A stretch of DNA of 64,000 nucleotides, taken from NCBI GenBank assembly GCA_001466705.2, contig LATX02000200.1, positions 1,798,001 through 1,862,000 of the forward strand. Reading direction: 5' to 3'. Positions within the stretch are counted from its first letter, which is position 1. The number at the start of each line of letters is the position of its first letter. This DNA comes from Moniliophthora roreri (lineage: Eukaryota > Basidiomycota > Agaricomycetes > Agaricales > Marasmiaceae). Made by a program: the position numbers and the translations under genes. Below the pieces are notes generated by a model that worked only from the letters and a program-made list of their open reading frames with translations, had not been told where the DNA came from and searched no databases. Below, piece by piece: positions 11,722 to 50,253 of the stretch.

Positions 11722-13299
11722 AGGGAGTGCTTGGATGATTACTGTTGCCCTGAGCTCCTTGGGGCTTGCACCGGTCAAAAACACGTGAAATCAGGTCCAA
11801 AGTCGTAGAGACTGAGCGGTGGGTTTCTCTTGACGCGAAGCACGATGACTCTTTGGAACCCCAATGACTACTATGTGCAGGTTGAATTATTACCCCCAAG
11901 GCTTGCAACATTACACCCTCTGCCTTTGCAAAAATAAGATCAACAGTGACAAGCAGTGACACGGTGGCAACGGCGGGCTCCCGGTGTCCCGGCACGGGGA
12001 GACCAGCAAACTTGGCATATAATCACAAGTCACAAGTAATGGGTATACTCGGATAGCTCTTGCAAGGGGGGGTCGTGCGACCTCATGCGCTTCAACGGAT
12101 TTTCGTTTGTTCGAAATCTCCGTGTCTATCGAGCATCAAGATTGACAGCAATACTGGTGGAACAGCTCCAAGTCATCATTTCCAAATATTAGTGCTTTTG
12201 CAGTGAAACATTTGTTCAGTTCCCTTTGTTGCATCAGCGCTTCACAATCCTGGCCTGGTCTCAAGGTTGACTCAAGCGCTAATACGCTCAACGACGGCGT
12301 CTGTCTCATAGTCATGCTTACACACAATCCACGATACGTCAGTTATCAATTGTTGATCAGATCCGACGGAGAGCACCAGCTGCAGAGAACTTGTATGCTT
12401 ATCCAGTAATACGCGGCCGCTCCCTTTCGCATGTGCACGCGACAGTGAACCCCTCCAATTCTCTGTGTCCAATGTCGTCTGCAAAAATAACCCAACATGC
12501 GAAATTTTCAGATCTTATTACCATTAGTGGTATGAAATCTGCTCATCATCTTACCACCCACCCAATCATTCTTCATCACATCTCTTCGGTTAGCGGGAAA
12601 ACTTATTCCGGTGAACGAATGAGAAAGCGCGCGGATACAATTTGTGAGAGCGACCAAGAGCCAAACCAACTTTGTTCACGCCACAGTTGACGCCCCAACA
12701 TGAACGACGGCGATCAACATTTCACGTCTCTCTGACATTACAGTTCCACCTCATAAACCACTACTACGACAACAACAACAACAACCAAAAGAGTCACTCG
12801 GCGGAATTACTTACTCCTTTTAAGAACCCTAGGGATACGAGAACCGCCACATTCGCAGGGGCATTACCGTTAATTAATGAACATCAAAACTTCTCGTCTT
12901 TGTCCCTCAATAGTGGTACGATACCGATAACGTCCCCCCCAGGGTCTTGTGGCATCACATCTCAACCTCTTCTGGGGATCTTCTTGTTCAAGCTGTACAA
13001 GTAAAGCACCTCGTTACGCAGTCAGCTGAAGAAGGCCAGTGAGCAGCCATCGATCGATGAGAACAAAATTTACATGCGGTAAGGTACACCCTTTTTCTTT
13101 TTTTTTTTTCTTTTTTCTCGTATTGATGTTCACGTTCATGGTTATCTCTGGCACTTTTCTTTACCAGCCAAGCATTCGTCACAATGACCCCATCTATGAC
13201 CGCTCCTTTTAATCTCCACGACGACAAGTGTCCAGGGAAACCAAGGACTCGAGTTTTTGGTAGCACGGATGCAATCGCAACCACTCTCACGCGCGCCTT

Positions 13300-13318
13300 C
13301 CCCCCCCCCCCCCCCCCN
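13300..13318. repeat. Poly-C run ending in an ambiguous base (N)
   Basis: Eighteen C in a row are followed by N at 13318, the only ambiguous base I noticed. The true run length is uncertain, so frames reading across it should not be trusted. Confidence 0.9.
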
Positions 13319-13843
13319 AAGTCCTGCTTTGTCCATGCGCATGCACAAAGAGAGAAGCGACAAATCTATTTTTACGCGATGGTATATGTGACAACAAAGG
13401 CAAGGTGGGCGGACCCGGGATATATGAGGACGAATACGGTAATGCGTACGATAACGATAAACATTGAACACATTTTCCTTTTGACCTTTTGAAACTGAAA
13501 CAGCAAACAGCAAGACAGCACAACATAGACGACGACGATGATGAGTACAGTAAGCAAGTAGTAGGGCTGACAGTAACGTAACGAAACGGAAGCTTGACAT
13601 TTCAATTTTGAGGGGAGGAAAACCAAAACATTTACGGAGAACGGAGATGGATGGGGAATTGTGGCCAATAAACAATGCATGTAGGATGAGAATAGACATT
13701 CTAGAATATTGCATACAACCGAGAGGATCGATGATGAGGGAAGGTCCACGAACAATGCGGGATGAGATGGAGGAGGATAGCGAGAGGGAGAAGGAAAAAA
13801 AAAAAAAAAAGTCCAATACAATGCAAGTCAACTGATAGATTTT

Positions 13844-30331: not shown

Positions 30332-32087
30332 TTACAAGGAAGCCGCTGCACTCTTTGAATACCGTCTGAATCCCCACATTCTTCGTCGAGCGCGAAAGAG
30401 CGTAGTCGACGCTGCTCCGATAACGAATCCGCTAGCAGTGACCAATGAATACAACATCGGTGCCGCAAGACTAGCTCTCCTCTCCAAGGTTCCATGAATA
30501 TGTGGCATTGACGATGAGCCAGACTCCAAATCAGGTCCCCGACTAGTGCGAAAGTCAGTCAACGCTGCACTTTGATTCATAGTACCCAATAGACCAATGA
30601 ACGGTGGATGCGTCGAGTTTCCACCGTGATGAATGCTGTAGACGTTCTGGAAGCACACTTCAGGTTCTAGCTGAGAAAAAGAATAGGATGGCGACTCACG
30701 CGGAGAAACACATCCCCAAGAAGCCAATCCCCAGAATCGACCTGTCGCGTACAACCTGTGATTCAGACTTCTCCCATCGAACTAGAAATAATTCCTCACG
30801 TTATCATTGGCTTGAATGCCTCCCATACACCATTCGCCATCAGAACCCCCTTCTGCCCAATTGACGTCCGCGTAGTCCATCGTGAACGCCCTGTGTGCAT
30901 CCTTATCCCCCAATACAAACTGAACACCGACGGCTTTGTTACATTTTATTTCCCACATGCAGCTTGCGATGTTGTACCTTGCATCGGGTCCTATCATTGC
31001 CCAAAAACTGTCAACGTCTGAAGTAGGTCCCAAGATCAGTGTAGTGCCAGTGTCAAGAACGGCTATTTGCTCCTCATGGACTCCCTGGACCGACGACTGC
31101 GATAGAGGAAGAGTGTAATTGTTCACGATAATGGATTGAAGAGGGAGCTTCCAGAAGCTGTAATCGTTCGCGCCTGCTTGAGAGACGGGAGTGATAAGGA
31201 AGGATGACATGTCAGACGAATATGTAGTGTCCAATTGACCGAAGGTGAGCGAGGAGGTGGGGGAATTCGGACCCGAATTCTTTCCGAGTTTGAACGCGAA
31301 GAACGGTTCGTCGAGGTACGCGAAAATGTTTTCCAATACTGTGGAACCTGACTTGATAAAAATCGTTGCCTCAGTGGGAAAGGAGAGGCCAAGAATGCCG
31401 GAGTTCCCAGTGCTGGCAAGATTCATACTTTGGATAACGTTGACGAGACCTTGAACGCAAAAGATTCAGTAACCAATGCCACACAACTCCTAACCACCTT
31501 ACCGAGAACTTGAGGGTTGATTTCAAATAGACCCATTGAGACCGTTTCGAAAGCTACGAGGCCTGAAACAGACCCTTTGAGATAATCGAGATGAAAGGGT
31601 TTTCGTGAAATCGAGAGATCCTTGGAGGAGGCTGGAGAATAGCGCCTTACAGTCGCGCAGTCTGAAACATCGCACTCGTCTGACACAATCCACTGCAAAA
31701 GAACGGTTATTCACGTCCATTAGTCACTTCAGTGGACACTCACCAAATCTGATGAGCCGGTATCTAGAATCAATGGAAAAAATTGCTTTCCGACCCTAAG
31801 TTGTCATAATATGAGCATCTTCACCACAATCTCGACAGCCGTAACGTGTACCCTACGTCGACAAGGTAGGAGCTGTACATTACAAGTTATTCAGTGTATC
31901 ATACAACATTTGAACTCGCTTACAATTCGTTGACATTCGAGATGGGTACAGAGTCCGTAATTCCGCGACGCTCAACTCGTGGAACGCGATGAAGCGGTAT
32001 CTTGAATCCTTTCTTGAGAGAGCTAGTAGCAGTGACATGACAGACATGAAGAAATAATAGGAAAAGAATGTGGACCATGACATGCAT
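30332..32087 (-). CDS. Membrane-anchored aspartic peptidase (pepsin family A1)
   Basis: This is a secretory-pathway aspartic endopeptidase. The start at 32087 (MHVMVHILFLLFLHVCHVTA) is a good signal peptide. A propeptide-like segment follows (KIPLHRVPRVERRGITDS). The first catalytic motif is LILDTGSSDL, completed across an intron as WIVSDECDVSDC. The second is QIAVLDTGTTLILGP. Near the end I read VDSGDWLLGDVFLRNVYSIH and then PPFIGLLGTMNQSAALTDF. The C-terminal exon adds a Ser-rich spacer, a hydrophobic helix (APMLYSLVTASGFVIGAAST) and a basic tail, RARRRMWGFRRYSKSAAASL. Both catalytic Asp motifs are intact. Small introns split the gene into about eight exons. The C-terminal anchor suggests a cell-surface or vacuolar enzyme rather than a fully secreted one. 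Confidence 0.9.
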
Positions 32088-34699: not shown

Positions 34700-37600
34700 A
34701 TGCATCGTGGCCGCGGTCGAGGTGGTCCCAGCCGAGGTGGTCCCAGAGCGTCAGGGTCTTCGTTTAGACCACCGCCTTCAGAAACCCCACCTGGTGGGAG
34801 CAACGCTACGATGGTCACGACCAACCTATTTCCTATCACAAAGTACGTTTTTTATCTCACGCGTAGTGTTCTTCAGTCGGCTTATTCCTTTTCATAGACT
34901 TCCGAACAAAAAATACTGGCAATACGAACTAAGTAAGCCACCGTTGCTCCTCGTTGACCCTGAACACCGATGTTCGTTCTATTCTACAGCTATCACTCCC
35001 GAAGTCAAGAATTTTGCCAGAAGACAGGAGATAATGGCGAGGTTGAAGACCAACGTGGCGCCAGATTTGTTCCAGTCGCTTCCTATCTACGATGGAATGA
35101 AACAAGTCTATGTCTGCTCAGAACTCAAACTTCATGGATCAGGCGGAGGAAAAGTAAGGTATCTGCATACTTTATCATGGAATATATCTGACTTCGATGC
35201 TTGCAGTACCTCGTGTCGATGAACAATTCCCCGCCTCAAGTTGGGCAACGAGGAACGTATGAAGTCCGACTGACAAAGACGAGTGCTGTACCGGTCAATT
35301 TCTCGTAGGCTCTTCTCCTTGCGTCTTGGTACGTGCCTGAAGGCCTGACGCTTTCTTAATAGTGACTTACCACGTCTGTTGAAAACGCGAGGATCTTCAG
35401 TTGAAGCCATTACCGTGGCCACAAACTTGTTGCAACTAATCATTAAACAAGCTTCCAACCAGTAAGTCAACTCGTGACATGTTCCTTCATTTTGTTGACT
35501 GACTCCACCAAAGAAACCACCCTCACAACGCTCGCTCGTACTTTACGGATCAAGGCAAGATGATCGTTCAGGGAAGTGGCCTCGAACTTTTGCGAGGATT
35601 CTTCCAGTAAGTACTTGTCATTGAGATTGCTTGGTCATGTTAACGACAGCTATCTTGTAGGTCTGTCCGCCCAGGCATCAACCAGATGTATATAAACGTC
35701 GACACTTCCATGACGGCCGCGTATGTTCCTGTTGCTCTATCTCACTCCCTGAACTCACTAAATATCTCAGCTATCGGCCGGGGAACCTGGTAGACCTGTG
35801 TATGGACTTTATGAACACAGGTAACGCTCGGGATCTCGCCCTGCCCGCAGGTTCTCGCGGTTTCAAGAAGCTGGAAAATTTTGTCAAGAAGATTCAGGTC
35901 TACGTCAGCTCGATGAAGAGAGTCAAGGTTATTCGAGGCCTCGAACCAAATGCCGATGGATTCCAGTTCAATAAAGACGGAGTGGCGATGACTGTCGGGG
36001 TGCGTATACGTCCCCATAAATAATCTCGTGTTCTTCCTGATCGACTTTGTTGACAGACGTATATGAAATCTGTACACAACATTGATCTACGCTATCGTGG
36101 GATTGTTGGTGCAAAACTTTCAGGACCAAATGAGACCCCAATCATTGTACCTCTGGAAGTCTGCATGGTTCAACTGGGTCAATTGTACAAGAAGAGGTTT
36201 CCAGAAGAGTTTACATCCGCTGCCGTTGGTTTCGCAACCCTCAAACCACAAGAACGATTGGATTGGATCTCTGCAAGGGGTTTGGCACCTGTGAGTCGTT
36301 TCGGCTGCATCATCAAAGCTCATTTATAACACTAATACTCAGGTTGGCGACTACGCCCGCTCGGAGTATATCACGGAAAGCGGCATGGAAATTGCCACAC
36401 AGCCTAAGACGATTCAAGGCAAGGTCCTCGACATACCATCGGTTATGTTTAAGGGGGAGCTGGTGAGTCTTATCGGTACAGTGCCATACCTATTTAACTC
36501 TTGGCGCTATGTTTAGAAACCCCAGAATGGTGCCTGGAACGTTTTGCACCAGCACTTGAACGAGGCGGCTCCTTTCACGACGTGGGCTGCCGTTACTTTT
36601 GCAGATCGCGTTCATAGAGCCGCCTTAGAGAGTCATATGAAGTCTCTTGCCGAATGTTGTTCCAACCTGGGTAAGCTTGCGTTAAGATACCATTGTTACC
36701 TTACCAACTTGCTAACTAGTTCGTAGGGATGAGTACGTGTATGAACTGTATTCGCGTGTTCTTTTCGATTTATTTTTATCTCTTCAGAGGTGGGACCGCC
36801 AGTAAAGATCTTAGAGGGTGGTGGCCAATATCCTGAACGTGTAAGTCTATCATGCTGCTGATGAAGCACTGATCTCACGGCATCCAAAAGGCTTTGAAGG
36901 AGATCATAGATGAAGCAGCACGACTTGGGTTGCCTAAAAATTTGTTTATCGTCCTCATTGTCCTCCCAACAAACGCTGCCGATTTACGTACTCAAGTAAA
37001 GCATTGGGGTGATATTGAGAATGGTTTGTGTGCACCCCAGCAAGGAGTTAATCAGGGACTGATTAGATTGACAGGTGTCCGTACACAATGTATCAGGGAG
37101 AGCAAGTTGTTCAAAGCCAATAATCAATATTGGAACAACATTGCCTTGAAGTGAGGATGCATCATGATTCCTGTGACAGACAGATATTAATGTACTTCCA
37201 AGATTGAATGCCCGGCTTGGGGGAAGAAATTTTGTTGTCAAATCCCCAGCAATGGCAAGATTTCGTTGTGAGCCGACCATTATCATGGGTGCGGATGTGG
37301 GGCACCCCGGACCAGGAATTCAGCGCCCTTCAGTTGCAAGCCTTGTCTGGTCTACGGATCTAGATGCTTCCAAGTACTGTGCAGTCACAAGTATTCAACA
37401 CCCTCGGCTAGAGAGGATTGCTGATTTAGAAGGGATGGCCGAGATTGCAATCAAAGACTTTGCCAGTAGGTTTGGTGGTACACCACCTTCTCGTATTCTC
37501 TTTTTCAGGGATGGCTTGTCCGAGGGCGAATACAAGAAGACAGCACAGGAGGAGATTCAGATGCTGGAAAGTAAGCCTGTGTTTTGTACCTTTCATGTTG

Positions 37601-38444
37601 CCACTCCTGACTGATCTTCTCACTTCTAGACATCTGGAAGGTTAAGCACAGTAATAAATTTCCAAAGCCACCCAAGCTCACCTATGTAATTGTAGGGAAA
37701 GGGTAAGATCACATTGAATACTATTTACACCGGACTTGCTGACAGGTCCATAGGCACCACCTTGTCTTCTTCCCTGGCAGCAGGAACGCCGCCAATGATG
37801 GCAAAGGCAACTGTAGAGCAGGTTTTGTGACTGACCAAAATACGGAGATCGCAAGTGCCTTGGCGCCAGACTTCTACCTCATGTCTCATCAGGCCATCCT
37901 TGGGAGTCAGTTTATTCTTTGACCTTGTCGTCTTGTTAGTGTTCCATGGACTGATTAACTCTTCCAGCGTCTCGCTCAAGTCATTATATTTTACTGCGTG
38001 ACGACAACAACGAGGGCATCGCAGGGTAAGATCCAACTGATTCCCATTATCGCTTTGCTGATGTGTAGATGCTTTGTAGGATTCAACAACTTGCATTCTC
38101 TCTATGCCACGTCTATGCTAAAGCAACTCGTTCAGTTTCCATTCCTGCCCCGGTTTACTGTAAGTCTGTGTACTTTATGGTGGATTACTTTCTCTGACAT
38201 CTTCATGCAACAGATGCTGATGTGAGTTGATATCTCCCACTTAGACAAGCTGACTTACCTGTTACCTGCTTAGCTGGCTTGTTCTCGTGCTGGATTCCAC
38301 TTCTCGCCCAGGTCACAACACCACTTCAGCGATACCTCTAGCGTTAGCAGTGGTGGAGGTGGTCGTCAGTTCGACTTGGAGCAGTGGACACAAGAATATC
38401 GACCCATCAATCATTCCATGCAGACTTCGATGTACTTCTTGTAA
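34700..38444 (+). CDS. Argonaute (PIWI-domain small-RNA effector)
   Basis: This is the core effector of RNA interference. From 34700 it reads MHRGRGRGGPSRGGPRASG, an RG-rich N-terminus. It continues KLPNKKYWQYEL (ArgoN), the L1 linker with GSGLELLRGFFQSVRPG, and a PAZ domain (YRPGNLVDLCMDFM to about 36010). L2 follows with HNIDLRYRGIVGAK and CMVQLGQLYKKRFPEEF. The MID domain has PKNLFIVLIVLP and TQCIRESKLFK. PIWI carries IIMGADVGHPGPG (first Asp), LERIADLEGM (Glu finger region), ILFFRDGLSEGEYK (second Asp) and, across an 8-nt microexon at 38214-38221, VYYADLACSRAGFH (third Asp). The protein ends SMQTSMYFL, with the stop at 38442-38444. All slicer positions are acidic, so cleavage is likely. 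ADVGHP replaces the common ADVTHP. About 20 exons; roughly 900 residues. Confidence 0.93.
38214..38221 (+). other. 8-nt microexon in Argonaute
   Basis: The eight bases atgctgat lie between an acceptor (caacag) and a donor (gtgagt). Joined to the flanking exons they give VYYAD and then LACSRAG, which restores the conserved PIWI block. Skipping it would shift the frame and lose the third catalytic Asp. Confidence 0.8.
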
Positions 38445-41284: not shown

Positions 41285-43873
41285 ATGTCAACCTTTGAAA
41301 GTAATCTTCGGCGAAGACGCGTAGAACTCCAATTCAGGAAGGTTACTCGTGAGTTCGACTTACACCTCTGGGAAAGGACTGTCTGACCAGGTTGCAGAGC
41401 AGATATTGAGATATCCGCCATGGATGTACGTCGTCGGACTGGGACTCTTGAGCTTCATCTCATACGTGCGTTGTCAACTGCAGCTTATCCTATAACTTAA
41501 TTTCTTGAAATACTGAACACTTTCGACAGATGCTCCTACGGCCTCAAGCAATGCGAATAGGCGTCCCTCCTTTATTCTACTCCGACCCTTCGGATTCAAC
41601 TGAATCATATCCCATCTTTCCCGATGCCTCCACCGCAAACTTAATCTCCGTACAAGCTACTAGACAAAAGGCAGTGGTCGGTGCTTTCAAGGTGAGTGAG
41701 TACCATGGTGGCGACACGCATATTGACACTTCACATATAGCATGCATGGAAAGCCTACGGTTTGTACTTTCAATGGCTATATTCACGTCCTATTCATCCA
41801 CAATACAGAACGTGACGCAATGGGCTCGGATGAATATCACCCAGATAGCGGAGAGGGAACCGATTTCTCGGGAGACGGTGGAATCGGGTATTTTATCGTC
41901 GATGCGCTCGACACCATGCATCTCATGGGTCTGAGATCAGAATATGAACGAGCGAGGCAATGGATTCAGGACGAGCTGTCATTCAAAAGGAACGGGATGT
42001 ACAGCACTTTCGAGGTGCATCGTATTACGTACCGACTGCGGAACTACAGCTGACTGTTCTCCACATAGACCACTATCAGAGTCCTCGGTGGGCTTCTTAG
42101 CGCATACTTTCTCACATCGGACCCATTATACCGCGAGCGAGCGATTGAACTTGGGGAACGTATCCTTCCAGCATTCAATACACCTTCCGGTCTTCCTATA
42201 TCTACCATCAATCTTGCTACCATAGAGGACATGCAAGGTGGATTACGAGGTGGTATGGGAATGGCACACGGGAACATTGCCGAAGTTGCTTCACTTCAGC
42301 TCGAGTTCAAGTATTTGGCAGAAATTGCGAAGAACGAGACCTTTTGGAGGAAGGCCGAGAATGTGATGGCGGTGGTCAATAAGGCGCTTCCTGAGAATGG
42401 GCTGGCCCCAATTCAAATTGAGTGGGTTTTCTCTTTGGAATGATGATCCCTGGCTGAGACGACTGTAGCATATACGGTGGATCCTTCATAGACTCGGAAA
42501 TTAGACTGGGCTCTCGAGGAGACTCGTATTACGAATATCTATTGTAAGTCTGTTTCGATTCATCCAGTCGCATAAACCTGACTCTATTGGGCAGGAAACA
42601 GTATTTACAAACGGTGAAATCGCTCTCCCAGTTTCCGTGAGGCTTTTAACATTTAAAGACTTAGGATCGAACGGAACCCATCTACAAGAAGGTATATGTC
42701 GTTTTCTTTTCTTTGATATGAGGCTGCCGCTCATCAATCTCATAGATGTACGATACAGCAATGCAGGGTGTCCACGACAAACTGGTGCAGAAGACCCCAA
42801 CCAAGGGACTAACTTACATTGCCCCACTTACCCCGCAACGACTCCTGAAAGGTGGGAAGTACGTACTGCTCAGGTGGAAATAGTCAACTACGTCTAATCA
42901 TTCTGCGAATAGAACTTGGAAGACCGGCAATCGTCAGGAACACCTGGTCTGCTTTTTGGCCGGTTCACTGATGCTTGGCGCAACGACATCAGGCGCACTA
43001 TCGCAGGGTGTATCCCTGCCTCCGTTACCCGAAGAACTGACGCCACAAGGACGTAGAGATTGGAAAACTGGGGTTGAATTGTTGGAGACGTGTATGCGAA
43101 CACACGAGACTGCGACGTGAGTCAACTGTGGCGCAAATCGGACACTAAATGACGCCATTCTAGAGGGCTCTCTCCCGAAATTGTGACATTTGGAACGGAT
43201 CCTGAAGGCTCGGACCGTGACTGGTACATACAAGATAGCAGGCATGTCCACCTTCGTTGTTCGCTTCTCTTGATGGTCAACCTTTCAATCCAGTATGGTA
43301 AGAGGTGGATCACCACCCTATGACGCTCGATATATGTTACGGTGGGTACCGTGTCATGCCCAAAAATACTGCGTATCAACGATCTGTTACAGCCCAGAGA
43401 CTGTCGAATCGCTGTTCATTGCCTTCCGCCTCACCGGAGATCCACGATACCGCGATTACGCATGGAACATCTTTTCTGCAATCGAGAAGCATTGTAAGCT
43501 TCAAACAGGAGGATATCTCACTGTATTGCATGTGGACCAGACTCCTGTGAGGCGCTTTGACCAAATGGAAACCTTCTTGATGGTGCTTCATTGGCCCCTC
43601 CTTGAATCATACCCGCGTCGCTGACCACTTCCTCGGAAACAGAGCGAAACATTCAAGTACCTGTACTTGATCTTCGGCGATTCGAGTGTCCTTCCGTTGC
43701 ACGGTGAAGCCTTCACTTAATCTTGTGGAATGTTTCTGATTTTTGCCATTTATAGACGTGGTGTTCAACACCGAGGTAAGTGGTCGTGTGCTAGGTTTAC
43801 ATCCGGTAGTGACTTTTCTCAGGCACATCCTTTCCCCATCTTCAAGCCGTCGATAAAGCCCGGATTCTTCTGA
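41285..43873 (+). CDS. GH47 ER-type mannosyl-oligosaccharide 1,2-alpha-mannosidase
   Basis: This enzyme trims N-glycans (Man9 to Man8 type) in the ER or Golgi. Exon 1 at 41285 encodes MSTFESNLRRRRVELQFRK, a basic cytosolic tail. Exon 2 carries the type II signal anchor (PPWMYVVGLGLLSFISY). Luminal GH47 blocks follow: DGGIGYFIVDALDTMHLMGL and HGNIAEVASLQLEFKYLAEI. The block EIRLGSRGDSYYEYLLKQYL contains the catalytic acid region. HLVCFLAGSLMLG, DWYIQDS and RPETVESLFIAFRLTGDPRY (second catalytic Glu) come next, then ETFKYLYLIFGD and VFNTEAHPFPIF, with the Ca-binding Thr. The stop is at 43871-43873. The expected acidic residues are all visible. About 14 exons; length near 530-560 residues, normal for the family. 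Confidence 0.92.
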
Positions 43874-44135: not shown

Positions 44136-45003
44136 ATGGCAGACTCATGGACAGACGGTCTCTTGCTCAAAATTATCAACGTTATCGTTTACTTCCTATT
44201 CCTCGGTTCCAATATTTATACCGTCGCCTCACCCAAGGGCATCTATTATTCCTCTAAAGTCACCTACATAACCCCAGCATCATGGGCATTCGCAATTTGG
44301 TCTCTCATTCATCTTCTTCTCCTCGGCACCATCATCTACCAATTTTTCAGTGGTGGTAAAAAGGTCATCGTTGACGGAATCAGTTGGAGGTTTCCATTGC
44401 TCGGTGTGCTGAACGCCATCTATGTCAACCTGTGGGCTGCGCAGTATTATATTGTCGCATTCGTTTTTGCGCTATTTGTGTCTAGCGCAGTCACCCACAT
44501 TTACTACATTGTCAAGAAGCACCACTCTTCCCAGAGCACTGCGGATGAAGTGTTCGTTCACCTTCCCTTCTCCTTGTACCACGGTTGGACGACTGTCCTC
44601 GTCGTGCTCACGGCGTTCGAGGCTTTCGGCGTCAACGCACTTGAAAAGCCTGCCGGTGTCTGGACGAAGGTGTTCGTGTTCCTTGGGTTGTAAGTTCATA
44701 TTCTTTAAACATCAGGACTCTTATTTTGAACACTGCTTGTGTTCTAGGTTCTTCCTCGAGGGCACGGCCGCTACCTACGCCTTCTCCAGTCCTGAAGGCG
44801 ACCTTCCAGCTTCCATTGCTATTGCGTGGTCTCTGTTCGCTATTTTCGCCCGCCAGACATCATCTGGTTTCATCCACTGGTCCGCATTGGCATTTGCTAT
44901 CCTTGCATTAGTTTGGGTTATCAAGGGTGCCTTTGGGTTGAGCTCCAGAGTCAGAGGTGTGAGATTGGAGGACGAGGAGAGGGCGCCGTTGGTTGGTTCA
45001 TGA
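44136..45003 (+). CDS. Multi-pass membrane protein, TspO/MBR-like
   Basis: Two exons separated by one short intron (about 44691-44747) encode an integral membrane protein of about 270 residues. The hydrophobic segments are [100 protein letters not shown] and [19 protein letters not shown]. Two more follow the intron. The pattern [18 protein letters not shown], with Trp/Pro in the first loop, resembles TspO/MBR-related proteins. Overall it looks like a conserved but uncharacterised fungal membrane family. It ends EERAPLVGS, a possible acidic sorting tail. The function is not established; I infer only membrane location. A strong TATA box precedes it. Confidence 0.75.
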
Positions 45004-45531
45004 ATATGAATTGTGAGCAACCGTAGCAAAATGCTGCTGCTCCATAATGCTTGTCAAAACACGGTAACACGGCACGATGATCTCAATTTCTTTCCGCTTT
45101 CCCATTTCATTTCATATCACTTTTAGTTATGCTTCTCAGTATCTGTAATTCTATCTTGTATACCTATATAGGCATACATTAAATGTCTGCTTTATTTCGC
45201 TGTCAAAGCACAAGAGGGAGAACGGGTGGATCTTGGTGGCGTGAAAACGACGTCAACGTCGGTAAAATGAGCACATACTATGATACAGTAGCGGGAAGCG
45301 GGGAAGAAGAGGAATGATGAATGATGAAGACGCTAAGCTATGATACAATTGGCCATGAATGATGTAAAATTACAGTGTTGCCGGCTGTAAATAGTTCGTG
45401 CGTGTGTGTTTACGGTATCGTTCTGTCCGCTAGTGAGTGAAAGAGGAGTTGGAATGTGGATAGCAGGTCAAGATGACGAGAATGGTAAAGCAAGTGAGGA
45501 AACGCAGCATTTAGACGCAGTTGGGCAGGGA
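45004..45531. other. Convergent 3' flank
   Basis: This 528-bp interval lies between the TspO/MBR-like gene and the small preproprotein gene, which read toward each other. Several AT-rich TATCTGT/TATACCTATATA stretches near 45140-45180 could carry polyadenylation signals. I see nothing else. Confidence 0.5.
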
Positions 45532-45936
45532 TCAGAAACATCCCCAACGGCAGGCTCTCTTTTCCACATCTTCCTCTTCGGCCGATTCGCCCACCATGCT
45601 TGGTGTACCCTCAAGCTCCTCCTTCCCTTTATCGACGTTCTTTATCCGGCTCTTCTTCGCATGCCGCGCGACTCCGGCCACTGCGTAGTCCGGATGTTCA
45701 GGGAGCATCTCTTTTCGCTGACGAAAAGACAGTGACGACGGTAATGAAACGTGAGTAGATGGATTCGAAATCGAATTGGCTGCTTCTCCATTCCACTGTA
45801 TAGCGACAGGAGAACACGATGATGCTATCCATGACGCATCGTCAGCTCGGGAAAGCAAGGAAGATAAAGGCAGTGACATACGAGTAAAGAGCAACATTGT
45901 GACCAATAAAACATACAGCCACCGACAAGGGTGCAT
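45532..45936 (-). CDS. Putative secreted preproprotein ending in KR + two-Cys heptapeptide
   Basis: This uninterrupted frame of 134 residues matches no family that I recognise. The start at 45936 (MHPCRWLYVLLVTMLLFTRM) puts a hydrophobic, signal-like segment at residues ~6-17. The frame is open upstream to 46224, but only this ATG places the hydrophobic segment at the N-terminus. The middle is Ser-rich. Near the C-terminus a basic stretch (RHAKKSRIKNVDKGK) is followed by an acidic one (GESAEEEDVE). A dibasic KR (residues 126-127) and the last seven residues ACRWGCF come next, with the stop at 45532-45534. An acidic spacer, KR and a short peptide with two Cys is the layout expected for Kex2 maturation of a disulfide-closed peptide. 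It does not end in a CaaX box, so it is not a typical basidiomycete mating pheromone. Expression is unproven. Confidence 0.45.
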   Translation of the reverse strand: MHPCRWLYVLLVTMLLFTRMSLPLSSLLSRADDASWIASSCSPVAIQWNGEAANSISNPSTHVSLPSSLSFRQRKEMLPEHPDYAVAGVARHAKKSRIKNVDKGKEELEGTPSMVGESAEEEDVEKRACRWGCF

Positions 45937-46776
45937 AACTAGTATGCAGTAGATAGAAATCAATGGTGGAGGGGAATAACGCGTCAAACGCGTCCGGAAA
46001 ATGGAAAGAATGGACCAATGCGAGGAGGGAGTCAAGGTGCGAATAATATCGGGATCGTAAGAGCTACACCGACGAAATCTGTGCGGCCGTCCCGGTTTGG
46101 TAGCTCGGAGGGTTGCTGTTAGCGTTTGGATAGTTGATCCCAAAAACAGCACGGCACGAGTGGCACCAGCTGAGAGGGGACGGAACAGATTGGCGATACA
46201 GCAATGAAATGTAAGAAGGGACACATTCTTATTTTATTGGCTGCGCCTCGTTGCATGTCTGAAGGGGACGTCAAAGACCAAGTTGAAAGGAGCTGTTTGT
46301 CACTTGCAGCATAGTAAACATGGTAATCCCGTAAGATGGACTTGAGGTATCAACGTGCATGCGGCATGCACAAGGAGAACGAAACGCCAAAACTGTAAAC
46401 AGCAGACTCGACTCAGTTCCTCATCTGTACGTACTTAATTGTCCAAGTTCGGTGATTCCATGCAGATACGAGGTCAGAAAAATGGTGACATACCCGAGAA
46501 ATTCTTGACACGCCTTTACCAGCTGTCAAAGAACTCTTTGTCCTATGCAAGTGTCCCGGTGTTGACTTTCTTACCCATGATCTCGTAGTAATACACTGAG
46601 TGCCTGCCGAGTATTGCTGGTATTGATGATAGTAGTGGTCGATTAGGTAACTATTCTTCAAGTTCTCTTAGAACTACTCTGACTTAAACTACGAAACCAG
46701 CTCGGTGTGTACGTCATCGATACTATAAACTTGACGAGTGACATTTTATTAACAGGCATTGTCGAATTTGGACTGA
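45937..46776. promoter_or_regulatory. Divergent upstream region
   Basis: About 840 bp lie between the preproprotein ATG and the OB-fold gene ATG. The only frames are short, and one continues the preproprotein frame upstream. No clear TATA box is seen for either gene. Confidence 0.4.
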
Positions 46777-47840
46777 ATGCCGACCGTCCTTCGAGTCTTC
46801 ATTGGCGCACCAACCGCAAGTGATCTGCGAACAAACCAAGCAGGATCTCTACAAGACCAGTGGATAAACGTGACTTCATCTCAGCCATTGAGCAGGCGAA
46901 GATTATCTCTCGAATTCGTGCCGTTACTACCACCGGCGACGTTGGAAGCAGCTAGTCGGCGTATTTCCGAGGTTTACAAATACGCTATTTTTCAGGATGA
47001 AAACGATGAAGAGGGAGAACGCGATAAAACTCAGGCTATGATAATAGATCGAACTGAACATGAAGGTTTGAATAGTTCTGCTCTGCTCTTCGGCCGACCG
47101 CTTATGAGCTTTGTCAGGTCAAACCACCGTTATTACATGGGACCTTACACCGTCTCGGGGAGCCAACCATGACAATTCGATCGAAATAGAGCGCTCGTTA
47201 ATGAGCATCACAGCATCTCGTATCGAAACTCAAGAAACCCAGTCTTACATCTATTCCGATACATCCTCAATAGCCCGTTTCCCTACTTTCAATATCAACC
47301 TACATTCTCTTACATCGCTTTCCATCATCACGAAGTCAAAAGGCAAAGGGACTTCTAAAGTAAACATGCTCTTGGCTGTCCTTGAGGTTGACGGCCCCGA
47401 AACCATCCGTTTGAAGAAGGGTCCAGACGCTGGCAAGGAGATATCAATTCTGAAGCTGATTCTGGGCGATGAGGAAGGGAGCTTGTGTAAGCTTACCGCC
47501 TGGAGAGAGGTCGCCGAGGCGTGGAGCGGAGCTGATGATTGTATTGCGGTGAAGCGAGGAGATGTGATCCTTCTGCAAAGTAGGCTTTTCCAAAACATTG
47601 GCACTGTACACTCCTCAAGACAACCTCCCAGATGTCATAATAAATTACGATCCTTCGACCTCGCCCACTATCACAGCGTCACCATACCTCAAGTCCAGGC
47701 TCGAAATTTGCTACCGGACGATGCCATGCGCTCGTGAGGACATAAAATTGCGACCTGATCTAAGATTGGGCGCCAGCGATGCCGCTGTAAGGAGGGTAGA
47801 GACTATCGTGCGCTGGTTTGAGAAAATGGCAGGCTTATAG
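46777..47840 (+). CDS. OB-fold-like, possibly nucleic-acid-binding protein
   Basis: Three exons join in phase. Exon 1 from 46777 reads MPTVLRVFIGAPTASDLRTN and ends TEHE. A 53-nt intron (47065-47117) leads to GQTTVITWDLTPSRGANHD and SIEIERSLMSITASRIETQE. The core, VNMLLAVLEVDGPETI, GKEISILKLILGDEEGSLCK, LTAWREVAEAW and VKRGDVILLQ, has the strand spacing of an RPA-like OB-fold. The second intron joins to NNLPDVIINYDPSTSPTITA and SRLEICYRTMPCAREDIKLR. The stop is at 47838-47840. The OB-fold call is inferred from the pattern alone. A role in single-strand DNA or telomere/repair complexes is possible, but nothing in the neighbourhood supports it. Basidiomycete orthologues probably exist, since all exons read cleanly. 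Confidence 0.65.
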
Positions 47841-50253
47841 CGCCTGCATAAAATTAATGAGGCTAGCAATCAGACGGCGAGTTTCCTCTGCTTCCTGTAT
47901 ACACTATTGCCTCAACCTCTCTTCGGCGCTACCTTCACGAATATTCTGACATGAAACAGCGCAGATTCCCGAAGTTACCAAAATCATTCCAATGGACAAT
48001 ACTATGATTTGTTGTGATACCGCTCGTAGCAGTGTTGGGTAGCTTTCTTGGAATCCTCTTTTGAAGTGCGCTGTGACATACTTTTTCACCCGGATGACAA
48101 TTTCTCTGATGCAGCGACTAGGGCACATCACTGATGATTGTCTTACCCGTCGGCGATGTCGCCGCTGCTTGATATTAACTTGAGTGTTCACAGACAGACA
48201 TATCAGCGATGAACGAGCTTGGATAGCCGTATTCCGGCCATATCGCGACTCATATGGCACCCAAGAGCAGGCTCGTCCCTTACCGCCATTAGCTATGTAA
48301 TGCACACAAATCAACAGTCCTCTTTCTAAAGGTTTTACTCTCCCCTCCGCTTCTACCTCCGCTCCTGTCTAACATCAGTCTAATAGTACTGTATTTACAA
48401 GTATCTCCTTGTGTTTGTGCCCCACAACAGCACCGCTGTATCCTTTGATACCATACCCTGGTTCACCGATGGGAATTGTCAACGCGATATTTCTTCCCGG
48501 CTTCTGAATAGCTCTGACCCTCGCAAAGTCACACCCTGCACGACTCATACGGCATATTCCTACTACGCTATGTACTGCTGCGTCGTCTCAAGCGGATCCG
48601 ATTCGGATACTTGGTCGATTGTCCGAGTTTTCGGTAGTTTAGAGAGGCGCTGTGCGGAAAGCTAAGGATAGCCATAATGTTCACCTTACCTGGAAAAACT
48701 CATTCGCTGCGGATGTGGAGCATGATCGATGGAACGGTTTTCGTAGATGGGTTCCCACCACTAAATTGCGAATGCGCTTGGGATGTCAACGTTATTCCCG
48801 TCTTGGGGTCGTCACTTCTTTATATTAGACGATTTTCCATATGATGATGCCCCAGCGGCCTCAAGTTCGGAGTACGCGCCACTCCTCCTCCGTATTTACC
48901 GTACCTGCGACGCACCTGGTTGTATACCTGAGCTCATTTACTTTCACCAGCAAATGAGTTGATTTCGCAGTTGAACACGCGGCCACTTACCGCCTCGACG
49001 CGTGATGACAGACGCGTTTCCATGTCTCACGTGCTTTACTTACAATTGACTTCAACCACCGTCATTCAGCCTGAAGAGGGCCAGGAAAAGGGTATACCTT
49101 TTGAATGATGGAACGGTAGGTTGGCGGGCGGTACGTTTCATATTCCGTCCTAAACGAACCAAAATTTGACATCCAAGCCCGCTGTAGGATCCTGTACCCG
49201 ATGGCGTTTTCGGGAGTCGGGATGCGCTGCTTCATCAGGTGAAACGCCGCTTGAGTTGGTCAACGTATTCGTCGAGTGACATAGGAGCATCATCTTGTCA
49301 CCTTAGTGCAATCAGATCATGAATATTCCAGATTTTTTTGGGAAGCCGTTGCTGTGGTTCGGTCTAGTGAGTAACCAGTCATGCCATTTGATGAATTGCT
49401 TCCAGTCCTCACGCTTTGACAACAAGGTCGTATCCAAGAGGAGAGCATATCTTTTGTGCGGGTATCATCAGATCAGGCCAGCTCGAACAATGGATCGAGA
49501 AACCGCAAGGCACCACTGAGGATCCATTTGCGAATACATAAGGGCGTCACCTCGCACTTTCTACGCTGACCTGTGCCTATACCCTACTGCGTAACATTGG
49601 ATTCCGGTTAATATGAATGTCCACTTCGACCCGAGGTTTTCACAAAGAGCTTCCAAGACCTCCGAATGCTCCTTTTTGAGGAGCTTGATTCTTCCGATGA
49701 TGCCCAGTCGAAATAAGGAACTCGACGTGTGTCATGTCTAACGCTGTGAGTAGTAACCACGCTTCCAATCAATATATTGTTTTATTCGACAGGGTCAACT
49801 TCCAGGCTATTACTCACTACGGGCTTGTCTTGACCGTGAGGAGTAGAGCTGTCATACATTTTACAGCTTCAGCGTACTGCGCGGTAGCACGGCTCCTTAG
49901 TCGTACTCACCGCGCAGTCATGCATTCAAACCTTCAAATGGGTAATCTCCTGATGGATTCGTAAGTCATACCGCATTCATCCTCATTCCGTATCCTCACA
50001 TGCACATACACTTTCGTGTTACAGAGACGAAACCGCACGCGGCGCTACTCAGCCTTGTCAATCTCAATATAGATCTTCCGACCCCTCCGACCCCGGGTAA
50101 CTCCGATCTCCCCTTCCCTTCTTAGATTCCAAGTCTGAGATAGCCGAAATTGCATCGCACCTGTTACGAGTTACGGGTTCCCTATATAAAGTCAGACTGC
50201 CATGTTACCGTCCCTTGTCCCACCTCTCCGTTCCCAACCCCACGACAGAAGCC
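47841..50253. other. Gene-poor interval
   Basis: About 2.4 kb contain no supported gene. The frame at 48411-48665 (84 codons) lacks a signal peptide and motifs. Near 49905-49965 the phrase HRAVMHSNLQMGNLLMDS faintly recalls a protein-kinase catalytic loop, but the catalytic Asp is replaced by Asn and no DFG motif follows. This could be a remnant. No repeats, RNA genes or transposon genes were recognised. Confidence 0.45.
50183..50190 (+). promoter_or_regulatory. TATA box of the small basic protein gene
   Basis: TATATAAA lies 64 bp before the ATG at 50254 and supports this small gene being transcribed. Confidence 0.5.

What the first reader, a model, noticed from the sequence alone, without database searches (positions are those of the whole stretch)
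45532..45936. Possible new Kex2-processed disulfide peptide precursor (KR-ACRWGCF)
The frame combines an N-terminal hydrophobic signal-like segment, a Ser-rich pro-region, a basic then acidic spacer (ESAEEEDVE), a dibasic KR and a seven-residue C-terminus with two cysteines three residues apart. This is the layout of fungal kexin-processed peptide precursors, but it carries a single C-terminal copy rather than tandem repeats. It is not a CaaX pheromone. The C-R-W-G-C ring recalls small cyclic peptide hormones and toxins, which may be chance. No modifying enzyme lies beside it.
Basis: partly seen in the sequence, partly recalled or inferred. Interest (0 to 1): 0.75.

Follow-up and report, generated by a model that had tools for sequence, protein, structure and literature searches.

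The report
Possible single-copy fungal cyclic peptide precursor
A fungus that rots cocoa pods carries a small predicted gene that looks like the precursor of one short, secreted, possibly ring-shaped peptide, but no expression and no relative in another species has been shown, so it is a candidate rather than a proven gene.

Summary
The frame exists as described: 134 codons on the minus strand ending KR-ACRWGCF-stop. The host is Moniliophthora roreri. A public M. roreri protein, P0002, is identical over the last 96 residues. From the first ATG the spliced product is 115 aa: a hydrophobic leader, a single KR and one C-terminal heptapeptide.

Chance is low but not negligible: 1 of 21,355 shuffled frames has the whole layout, meaning a few per genome. 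Coding tests disagree: one puts the frame among non-coding frames, a better-trained one among coding pieces except for the leader. Two searches found no relative outside M. roreri, in a database with 681 matches to the neighbouring gene. No paralogue was found.

It fails a defining feature of KEPs, alpha-pheromones, CaaX pheromones and UstYa RiPPs. It would work most like a single-copy kexin-released peptide. I give 0.42 to a real precursor releasing ACRWGCF, against 0.36 for a chance frame. Two published KEP surveys require repeats, so could not have listed it.

The parts
45882..45936 (-). Exon 1: first ATG plus hydrophobic core (MHPCRWLYVLLVTMLLFT + 1 nt), probable signal peptide
   Evidence: 11-residue hydrophobic mean 2.74; -3 is G at this ATG and A at the inner ATG. 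P0002 starts at the inner ATG, at 45897. Exon 1 scores poorly for coding (hexamer -0.62; 40-codon window over the leader -0.06).
45825..45881 (-). Probable 57-nt in-frame intron (GTATGT donor, CTGAC branch-like site, TAG acceptor)
   Evidence: P0002 has exactly the residues expected if it is removed. The same strict motif occurs 3 times in 528 kb of strand against a mean of 1.7 in 10 shuffles, 3 of which reach 3 or more.
45535..45824 (-). Exon 2: end of leader, Ser-rich pro-region, basic then acidic spacer, KR, ACRWGCF
   Evidence: codon score 0.056, above 64% of 77 coding pieces and reached by 3.4% of 385 shadow pieces.
45556..45561 (-). KR, the only Kex2-favoured dibasic in the predicted protein (context VEKR|AC)
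   Evidence: other dibasics: RK at 55, KK at 75.
45535..45555 (-). ACRWGCF: predicted released heptapeptide, possible Cys2-Cys6 disulfide ring (calculated [M+H]+ 840.328 oxidised)
   Evidence: mass.
45532..45534 (-). Stop codon TGA
45191..45196 (-). AATAAA about 336 nt after the stop, possible polyadenylation signal (weak; two more AATAAA lie upstream of the gene at 46238 and 46750)

Best explanation
A small two-exon secreted-protein gene of Moniliophthora roreri whose product enters the ER through an N-terminal signal peptide. It passes through the Golgi with a Ser-rich, basic-then-acidic pro-region, and kexin cuts it once after VEKR. That releases one C-terminal heptapeptide, ACRWGCF, whose two cysteines (C-x3-C) could close a small disulfide ring, for action outside the cell as a signal or a lineage-specific secreted factor. 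Shown: the frame, the single KR, the intron signals and matching public gene model, and kexin-type P-domain matches in the genome. Inferred: transcription, signal cleavage, kexin cutting, the disulfide and any activity.
For: The frame is exact. A public gene model, P0002, has the spliced frame. The intron signals are canonical and keep the frame. The combined layout is found in 1 of 21,355 shuffled frames. The codon score of the 134-aa frame exceeds 51% of 77 coding pieces and is reached by 6% of 385 shadow pieces; the open extension upstream of the ATG scores -0.061. There is one favoured dibasic site, right before the two-cysteine tail. Two PF01483 matches lie on C45, from 3 candidates. The 1.1-kb region matches only itself in the genome, and the frame sits between two plus-strand genes.
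Against: No RNA or peptide evidence was available. The only database match is M. roreri itself (1 of 50 candidates; 1 of 1), although the neighbouring gene has 681 matches (itself included), with three Marasmius species at 83-85% among the 120 listed. P0002 lists only uniref and metaclust as sources while the neighbour lists ncbi, uniref and nr, so another annotation set may lack the gene. The first hexamer test (15 training ORFs) put the frame inside the non-coding range: 29 of 165 short frames and 10 of 29 shadow frames scored as high. In the codon model the leader itself scores -0.06, like the sequence upstream, so the positive score comes from exon 2. Synonymous choice gives no support, though that test has almost no power (AUC 0.57). 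By the looser end criterion 2 of 632 real frames qualify, one of them elsewhere in the window. The strict intron motif is not clearly enriched (3 against 1.7). The spliced leader lacks an ideal cleavage site: PVA has Pro at -3.
Confidence: 0.42

Rival explanations
1. Chance frame: an untranslated open frame in the 1.8-kb interval between two plus-strand genes that happens to end in KR-ACRWGCF; P0002 is an ab initio over-prediction.
For: Shuffled DNA yields the full layout about once per 16 Mb, a few per genome (from one event). No relative in annotated proteomes. Negative first coding test and negative codon score of the leader. First-stage readers pick out the rarest-looking frames, so selection is strong.
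Against: Canonical in-frame intron with the same junction in a public model; codon score of exon 2 typical of coding pieces; rarity within the 264 kb examined.
Confidence: 0.36
2. A real small secreted protein (orphan effector-like or cell-wall protein) that is not cut at KR; the C-terminal cysteines pair within the whole protein or with other chains.
For: Orphan status is usual for small secreted proteins of plant pathogens (general knowledge). The spliced precursor has four cysteines, at 4, 22, 110 and 114, two of them in or near the leader.
Against: After signal removal few cysteines remain outside the heptapeptide; VEKR|A is a textbook kexin context (resembles the LEKR/LDKR sites of yeast alpha-factor, recalled).
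Confidence: 0.15
3. RiPP precursor whose core is further cyclised by UstYa-type oxidases encoded elsewhere in the genome.
For: The genome holds UstYa matches (23 matches from 27 candidates), and a Kex2-released C-terminal core would be a possible substrate.
Against: None of the 23 matches lies on contig C100. The core is not repeated. In the 22 window frames scanned against Pfam besides P0001 (a subset of the window's frames) no oxidase, cyclase or methyltransferase family appeared; one aspartyl protease did (30782-31465).
Confidence: 0.04
4. Part of the UTR or an intron of another gene.
For: The interval is flanked by genes at 44136-45003 and from 46777.
Against: Both flanking genes are on the plus strand, and the next minus-strand open run of at least 130 codons upstream is 47904-48368, so a same-strand host gene would have to span the plus-strand frames at 46777-47737.
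Confidence: 0.03

Closest known systems
KEX2-processed repeat proteins (KEPs) of fungi (PMC6339444, PMC7329392, PMC9769878; passages seen)
   Same: Signal-like leader, pro-region, KR site, short secreted peptide; Agaricomycetes secrete such peptides, and PMC7329392 lists Moniliophthora among genera with a KEP type.
   Different: One unrepeated C-terminal copy. PMC6339444 required at least four fragments and excluded the C-terminal part of each protein; PMC7329392 required highly repeated sequences.
Ascomycete two-cysteine alpha-type pheromones (e.g. motif RFCHLPGQGCSK quoted in PMC6339444) and the Trichosporon QSWGGCGGRGTPCW peptide (same paper)
   Same: Kexin-released short peptide with two cysteines and aromatic residues.
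   Different: C-x3-C rather than the longer spacing, no GQ core, no Ste13 dipeptides, one copy.
Qsp1 of Cryptococcus neoformans (PMC7537855 and PMC6571750; passages seen)
   Same: A basidiomycete makes a short signalling peptide from a secreted precursor.
   Different: Released outside the cell by Pqp1, not at a kexin KR; no sequence likeness was tested.
Hydrozoan neuropeptide GPPCRWGCamide (Clytia; PMC8638164, one passage seen)
   Same: Identical CRWGC segment, said there to become cyclic through a cystine bridge.
   Different: Animal, multi-copy RWGamide precursor, amidated. Taken as coincidence or convergence; no homology claimed.
Single Kex2-flanked peptide upstream of a GH128 domain in Coprinopsis cinerea (PMC9769878, passage)
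   Same: Single non-repeated Kex2 peptide; the authors say it cannot be classed as a KEP.
   Different: There the peptide precedes an enzyme; here it is the C-terminus of a small precursor.

Membership tests
KEP | Signal peptide | tested here: inconclusive
   Hydrophobic leader (2.74 over 11 residues); no SignalP available; spliced cleavage site imperfect.
KEP | Repeated core peptides separated by Kex2 sites | tested here: not met
   One KR and one core in the whole protein.
Ascomycete alpha-type pheromone precursor | Several copies with Ste13 XA/XP dipeptides after KR | tested here: not met
   KR-ACRWGCF, single copy, residue 2 is Cys.
Basidiomycete lipopeptide (CaaX) pheromone precursor | C-terminal CaaX box | tested here: not met
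   The last four residues are WGCF.
Ustiloxin-type (dikaritin) RiPP | UstYa (DUF3328) gene close to the precursor | tested here: not met
   23 UstYa matches from 27 candidates in the genome, none on contig C100.
Single-copy kexin-released secreted peptide (functional kind, not a sequence family) | KR directly before a short C-terminal peptide, with a kexin-type protease in the genome | tested here: met
   PF01483 P-domain matches on C45, each with one stop inside in six-frame reading, so an intact kexin gene was not assembled.
Single-copy kexin-released secreted peptide (functional kind, not a sequence family) | Mature peptide detected | not testable with these tools
   No peptidomics or RNA data held.
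Any Pfam family | Profile match | tested here: not met
   0 families for P0001 at E up to 10; 0 for P0002 at E up to 0.1.

The most novel reading that the evidence does not exclude
A cyclic disulfide heptapeptide hormone of a mushroom-forming fungus, made as one C-terminal copy per precursor like an animal prohormone. It would be an example of a whole class of single-copy fungal prohormones missed because KEP surveys demand repeats and at least one sets the C-terminal fragment aside.
Probability: 0.15. Interest if true: 0.75.

Novelty: new variant of a known kind. Interest (0 to 1): 0.4.

Why it matters
If real, it shows that agaric fungi may use single-copy prohormones with a small disulfide ring, a layout that the repeat-based KEP surveys seen here could not list. 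It would also give M. roreri a secreted peptide candidate with no Pfam match. If it is not real, it is a useful warning: the same layout is expected a few times per fungal genome by chance.

Tried and rejected
Rejected: CaaX pheromone (ends WGCF); KEP (no repeats); alpha-pheromone (spacing, copy number, no Ste13 site); UstYa RiPP cluster (none on the contig); UTR or intron of a neighbour (strand layout); multi-copy or transposon-borne frame (the 1.1-kb region matches only itself). The 48 CRWGC-coding DNA hits in the genome (23 forward, 25 reverse; reversed-pattern control 23) were not taken as relatives: 22 of 48 share one DNA form (TGTAGGTGGGGCTG), and only this locus has KRxCxWGCx-stop. I did not read the other 47 places one by one.

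Led nowhere: Pfam for P0001 (0 families) and PDB (one chance-level match, E 1.3); tblastn against phages (3 records at E = 9); literature for CRWGC (2 papers, neither fungal); Moniliophthora with Kex2 (15 of 707 listed, 2 papers, listing only); single or disulfide kexin peptides in fungi (2 papers, 12 of 18 listed). CCAAT occurs at four places on the minus strand of the interval, two of them downstream of the ATG, so it says nothing about a promoter. The first hexamer test is kept although it speaks against coding. Its training set was 15 ORFs; the codon model (77 runs, AUC 0.83) is better trained. No structure was predicted: a 7-residue tail and an orphan pro-region would give no usable model.

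Full report
What is there. On the minus strand, 45936-45532 encodes MHPCRWLYVLLVTMLLFTRMSLPLSSLLSRADD...GESAEEEDVEKRACRWGCF-stop, 134 aa. The frame is open for 233 codons, but its first ATG is at 45936.

Host. The only database match is P0002, UniRef A0A0W0FZQ3 of Moniliophthora roreri (taxonomy). The neighbouring membrane protein is 100% identical to one of M. roreri MCA 2997. The assembly holding the window is 59.4 Mb in 154 contigs. [quoted passage not shown]

The gene model changes. P0002 is 102 aa and reads MLLFTPSSCSPVA..., where the genome reads MLLFTRMSLPLSSLLSRADDASWIASSCSPVA...; the last 96 residues are identical. The difference is the removal of 57 nt at 45881-45825 on the minus strand: GTATGT at the start, CTGAC near the end, TAG at the close. 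The segment is a multiple of three and has no in-frame stop, so it does not break the frame. Taken from the first ATG, the spliced protein is 115 aa. Its leader is MHPCRWLYVLLVTMLLFTPSSCSPVA. The (-3,-1) positions are imperfect (Pro at -3 for the PVA site; SSC or PSS are alternatives), so the signal peptide is likely but unproven. SignalP was not available.

Chance. In 264 kb (the window plus twenty 10-kb pieces of contig C110), there are 632 ATG frames of at least 60 aa. One ends in KR with two cysteines in the strict tail pattern, and it is this one; the 200 kb outside the window has none. Sixty dinucleotide shuffles gave 21,355 frames: 10 with such an end, and 1 with the hydrophobic start and at least 100 aa as well. 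So the layout is expected by chance about 0.004 times per 64-kb window and about four times per genome. Shuffles hold fewer frames than real DNA (about 356 against 632 per 264 kb); per frame, the expectation in the 632 real frames is about 0.3 for the end alone and 0.03 for the whole layout. The last figure rests on one event. A looser criterion (KR or RR, at least two Cys after it in the last 20 residues, hydrophobic start) is met by 2 of 632 real frames, the second at 13142-13714, against 5 of 3,573 shuffled frames. Rarity alone therefore cannot prove function.

Coding evidence. A hexamer model trained on 15 long ORFs put the frame at -0.097, among short non-coding frames (29 of 165 as high) and shadow frames (10 of 29 as high); exon 1 scores -0.62 and exon 2 0.016. 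That result is against coding. A codon model trained on 77 non-overlapping stop-to-stop runs (19,246 codons, target excluded; leave-one-out AUC 0.83) gives 0.033, above 51% of 77 coding pieces and reached by 6% of 385 shadow pieces. Exon 2 alone gives 0.056 (64%; 3.4%). The 99 open codons upstream of the ATG score -0.061, but a 40-codon window over the leader also scores -0.06, so the support comes from the pro-region and tail. A well-conserved gene next door scores 0.024 over its first exon, and the overlapping plus-strand frame 45454-45735 scores 0.003. Synonymous choice alone carries almost no signal here (AUC 0.57). I read the two tests together as mild support for exon 2 being coding.

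Intron. The motif in strict form occurs 3 times in 528 kb of strand against a mean of 1.7 in 10 shuffles, 3 of which reach 3 or more. By proportion that is about 0.001 expected within a 405-nt frame, but I chose the strict form after seeing it. P0002 uses the same junction, though a gene finder would read the same signals.

Context. A plus-strand gene ends at 45003 and another plus-strand frame starts at 46777. No minus-strand open run of at least 130 codons lies between 46233 and 47904. An AATAAA lies about 336 nt after the stop. The 1.1-kb region matches only itself in the genome, and the protein has one match, itself, from 3 candidates.

Processing. The spliced protein has three dibasic pairs: RK, KK and the terminal KR. 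KR is the favoured kexin site. Its context, VEKR|AC after an acidic run, resembles the yeast alpha-factor spacer (recalled). Two PF01483 (proprotein-convertase P-domain) matches lie on contig C45, each with one stop inside in six-frame reading. A single cut would release ACRWGCF. A Cys2-Cys6 disulfide would make a small ring with calculated [M+H]+ 840.328. None of these steps was observed.

Relatives. Searches of 5.8 billion proteins with the whole 134-aa frame and with its last 40 residues returned only P0002 (1 of 50 candidates at E up to 10; 1 of 1). As a control, the neighbour's protein returned 681 matches at E up to 1e-10, itself included. Among the 120 listed are Marasmius tenuissimus (85%), M. 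crinis-equi (83%) and M. oreades (83%), so close agarics are in the database. The negative is weak in three ways. Small spliced genes are often not annotated. The tool needs several shared 5-residue words, so a relative sharing only CRWGC would be missed. Only proteins of about 74-234 aa were candidates. DNA of other fungi could not be searched. Whether M. perniciosa has the gene is unknown.

Comparison with known kinds. It is not a KEP (no repeats), not an alpha-pheromone (one copy, C-x3-C, no Ste13 dipeptide), not a CaaX pheromone (WGCF end) and not in a UstYa cluster (23 UstYa matches, none on C100). PMC6339444 required at least four fragments and set aside the C-terminal part of each protein (passages). 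PMC7329392 required highly repeated sequences, and lists Moniliophthora among genera with a conventional KEP type (passages). PMC9769878 describes one single-peptide Kex2 protein in C. cinerea that its authors decline to call a KEP (passages). In how it would work the frame is closest to a single-copy prohormone. Cryptococcus Qsp1 is a basidiomycete precedent for a short signal cut from a secreted precursor, by a different protease (passages). The hydrozoan peptide GPPCRWGCamide shares CRWGC exactly (passage). I take this as coincidence.

Verdict. A rather well-formed candidate precursor (0.42), with a chance frame nearly as likely (0.36). Interest is moderate: RNA-seq and assemblies of both Moniliophthora species have been published but could not be reached here.

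Noticed in passing
47108-47737 (+): Match to SHLD2_OB1 (shieldin complex subunit 2, first OB fold; E 6.8e-7, 29.5 bits against a cut-off of 26) in a basidiomycete, on the plus strand beside the peptide frame. One literature search listed 6 of 170 papers; none of these 6 held SHLD2.
   Followed up: partly
42231-42443 and 43295-43624 (+): Two frames matching glycosyl hydrolase family 47 (E 1.6e-9 and 6.4e-19), presumably exons of one alpha-mannosidase gene.
   Followed up: partly
37177-37614 (+): Frame matching the Piwi domain (E 1.2e-22), probably an exon of an Argonaute gene.
   Followed up: no
one search hits, e.g. L003, L009, L011: 22 of the 48 CRWGC-coding DNA hits share TGTAGGTGGGGCTG across many contigs, which suggests a repeat family.
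   Followed up: no
G000 contig C45, 128696-129001 and 159320-159493: Two kexin P-domain matches 30 kb apart, each with one stop inside the matched stretch in six-frame reading: two kexin-like genes, or one plus a fragment.
   Followed up: no
44136-45003 (+): Two-exon membrane protein, 74-85% identical to its listed relatives other than itself (120 of 681 listed; the named ones are mushroom-forming fungi), with no Pfam family above its cut-off; some relatives are named DUF1774 or tryptophan-rich sensory protein.
   Followed up: partly
13142-13714 (-): A second frame in the window (190 aa) with a hydrophobic start and a dibasic pair before a two-cysteine tail by the looser criterion.
   Followed up: no
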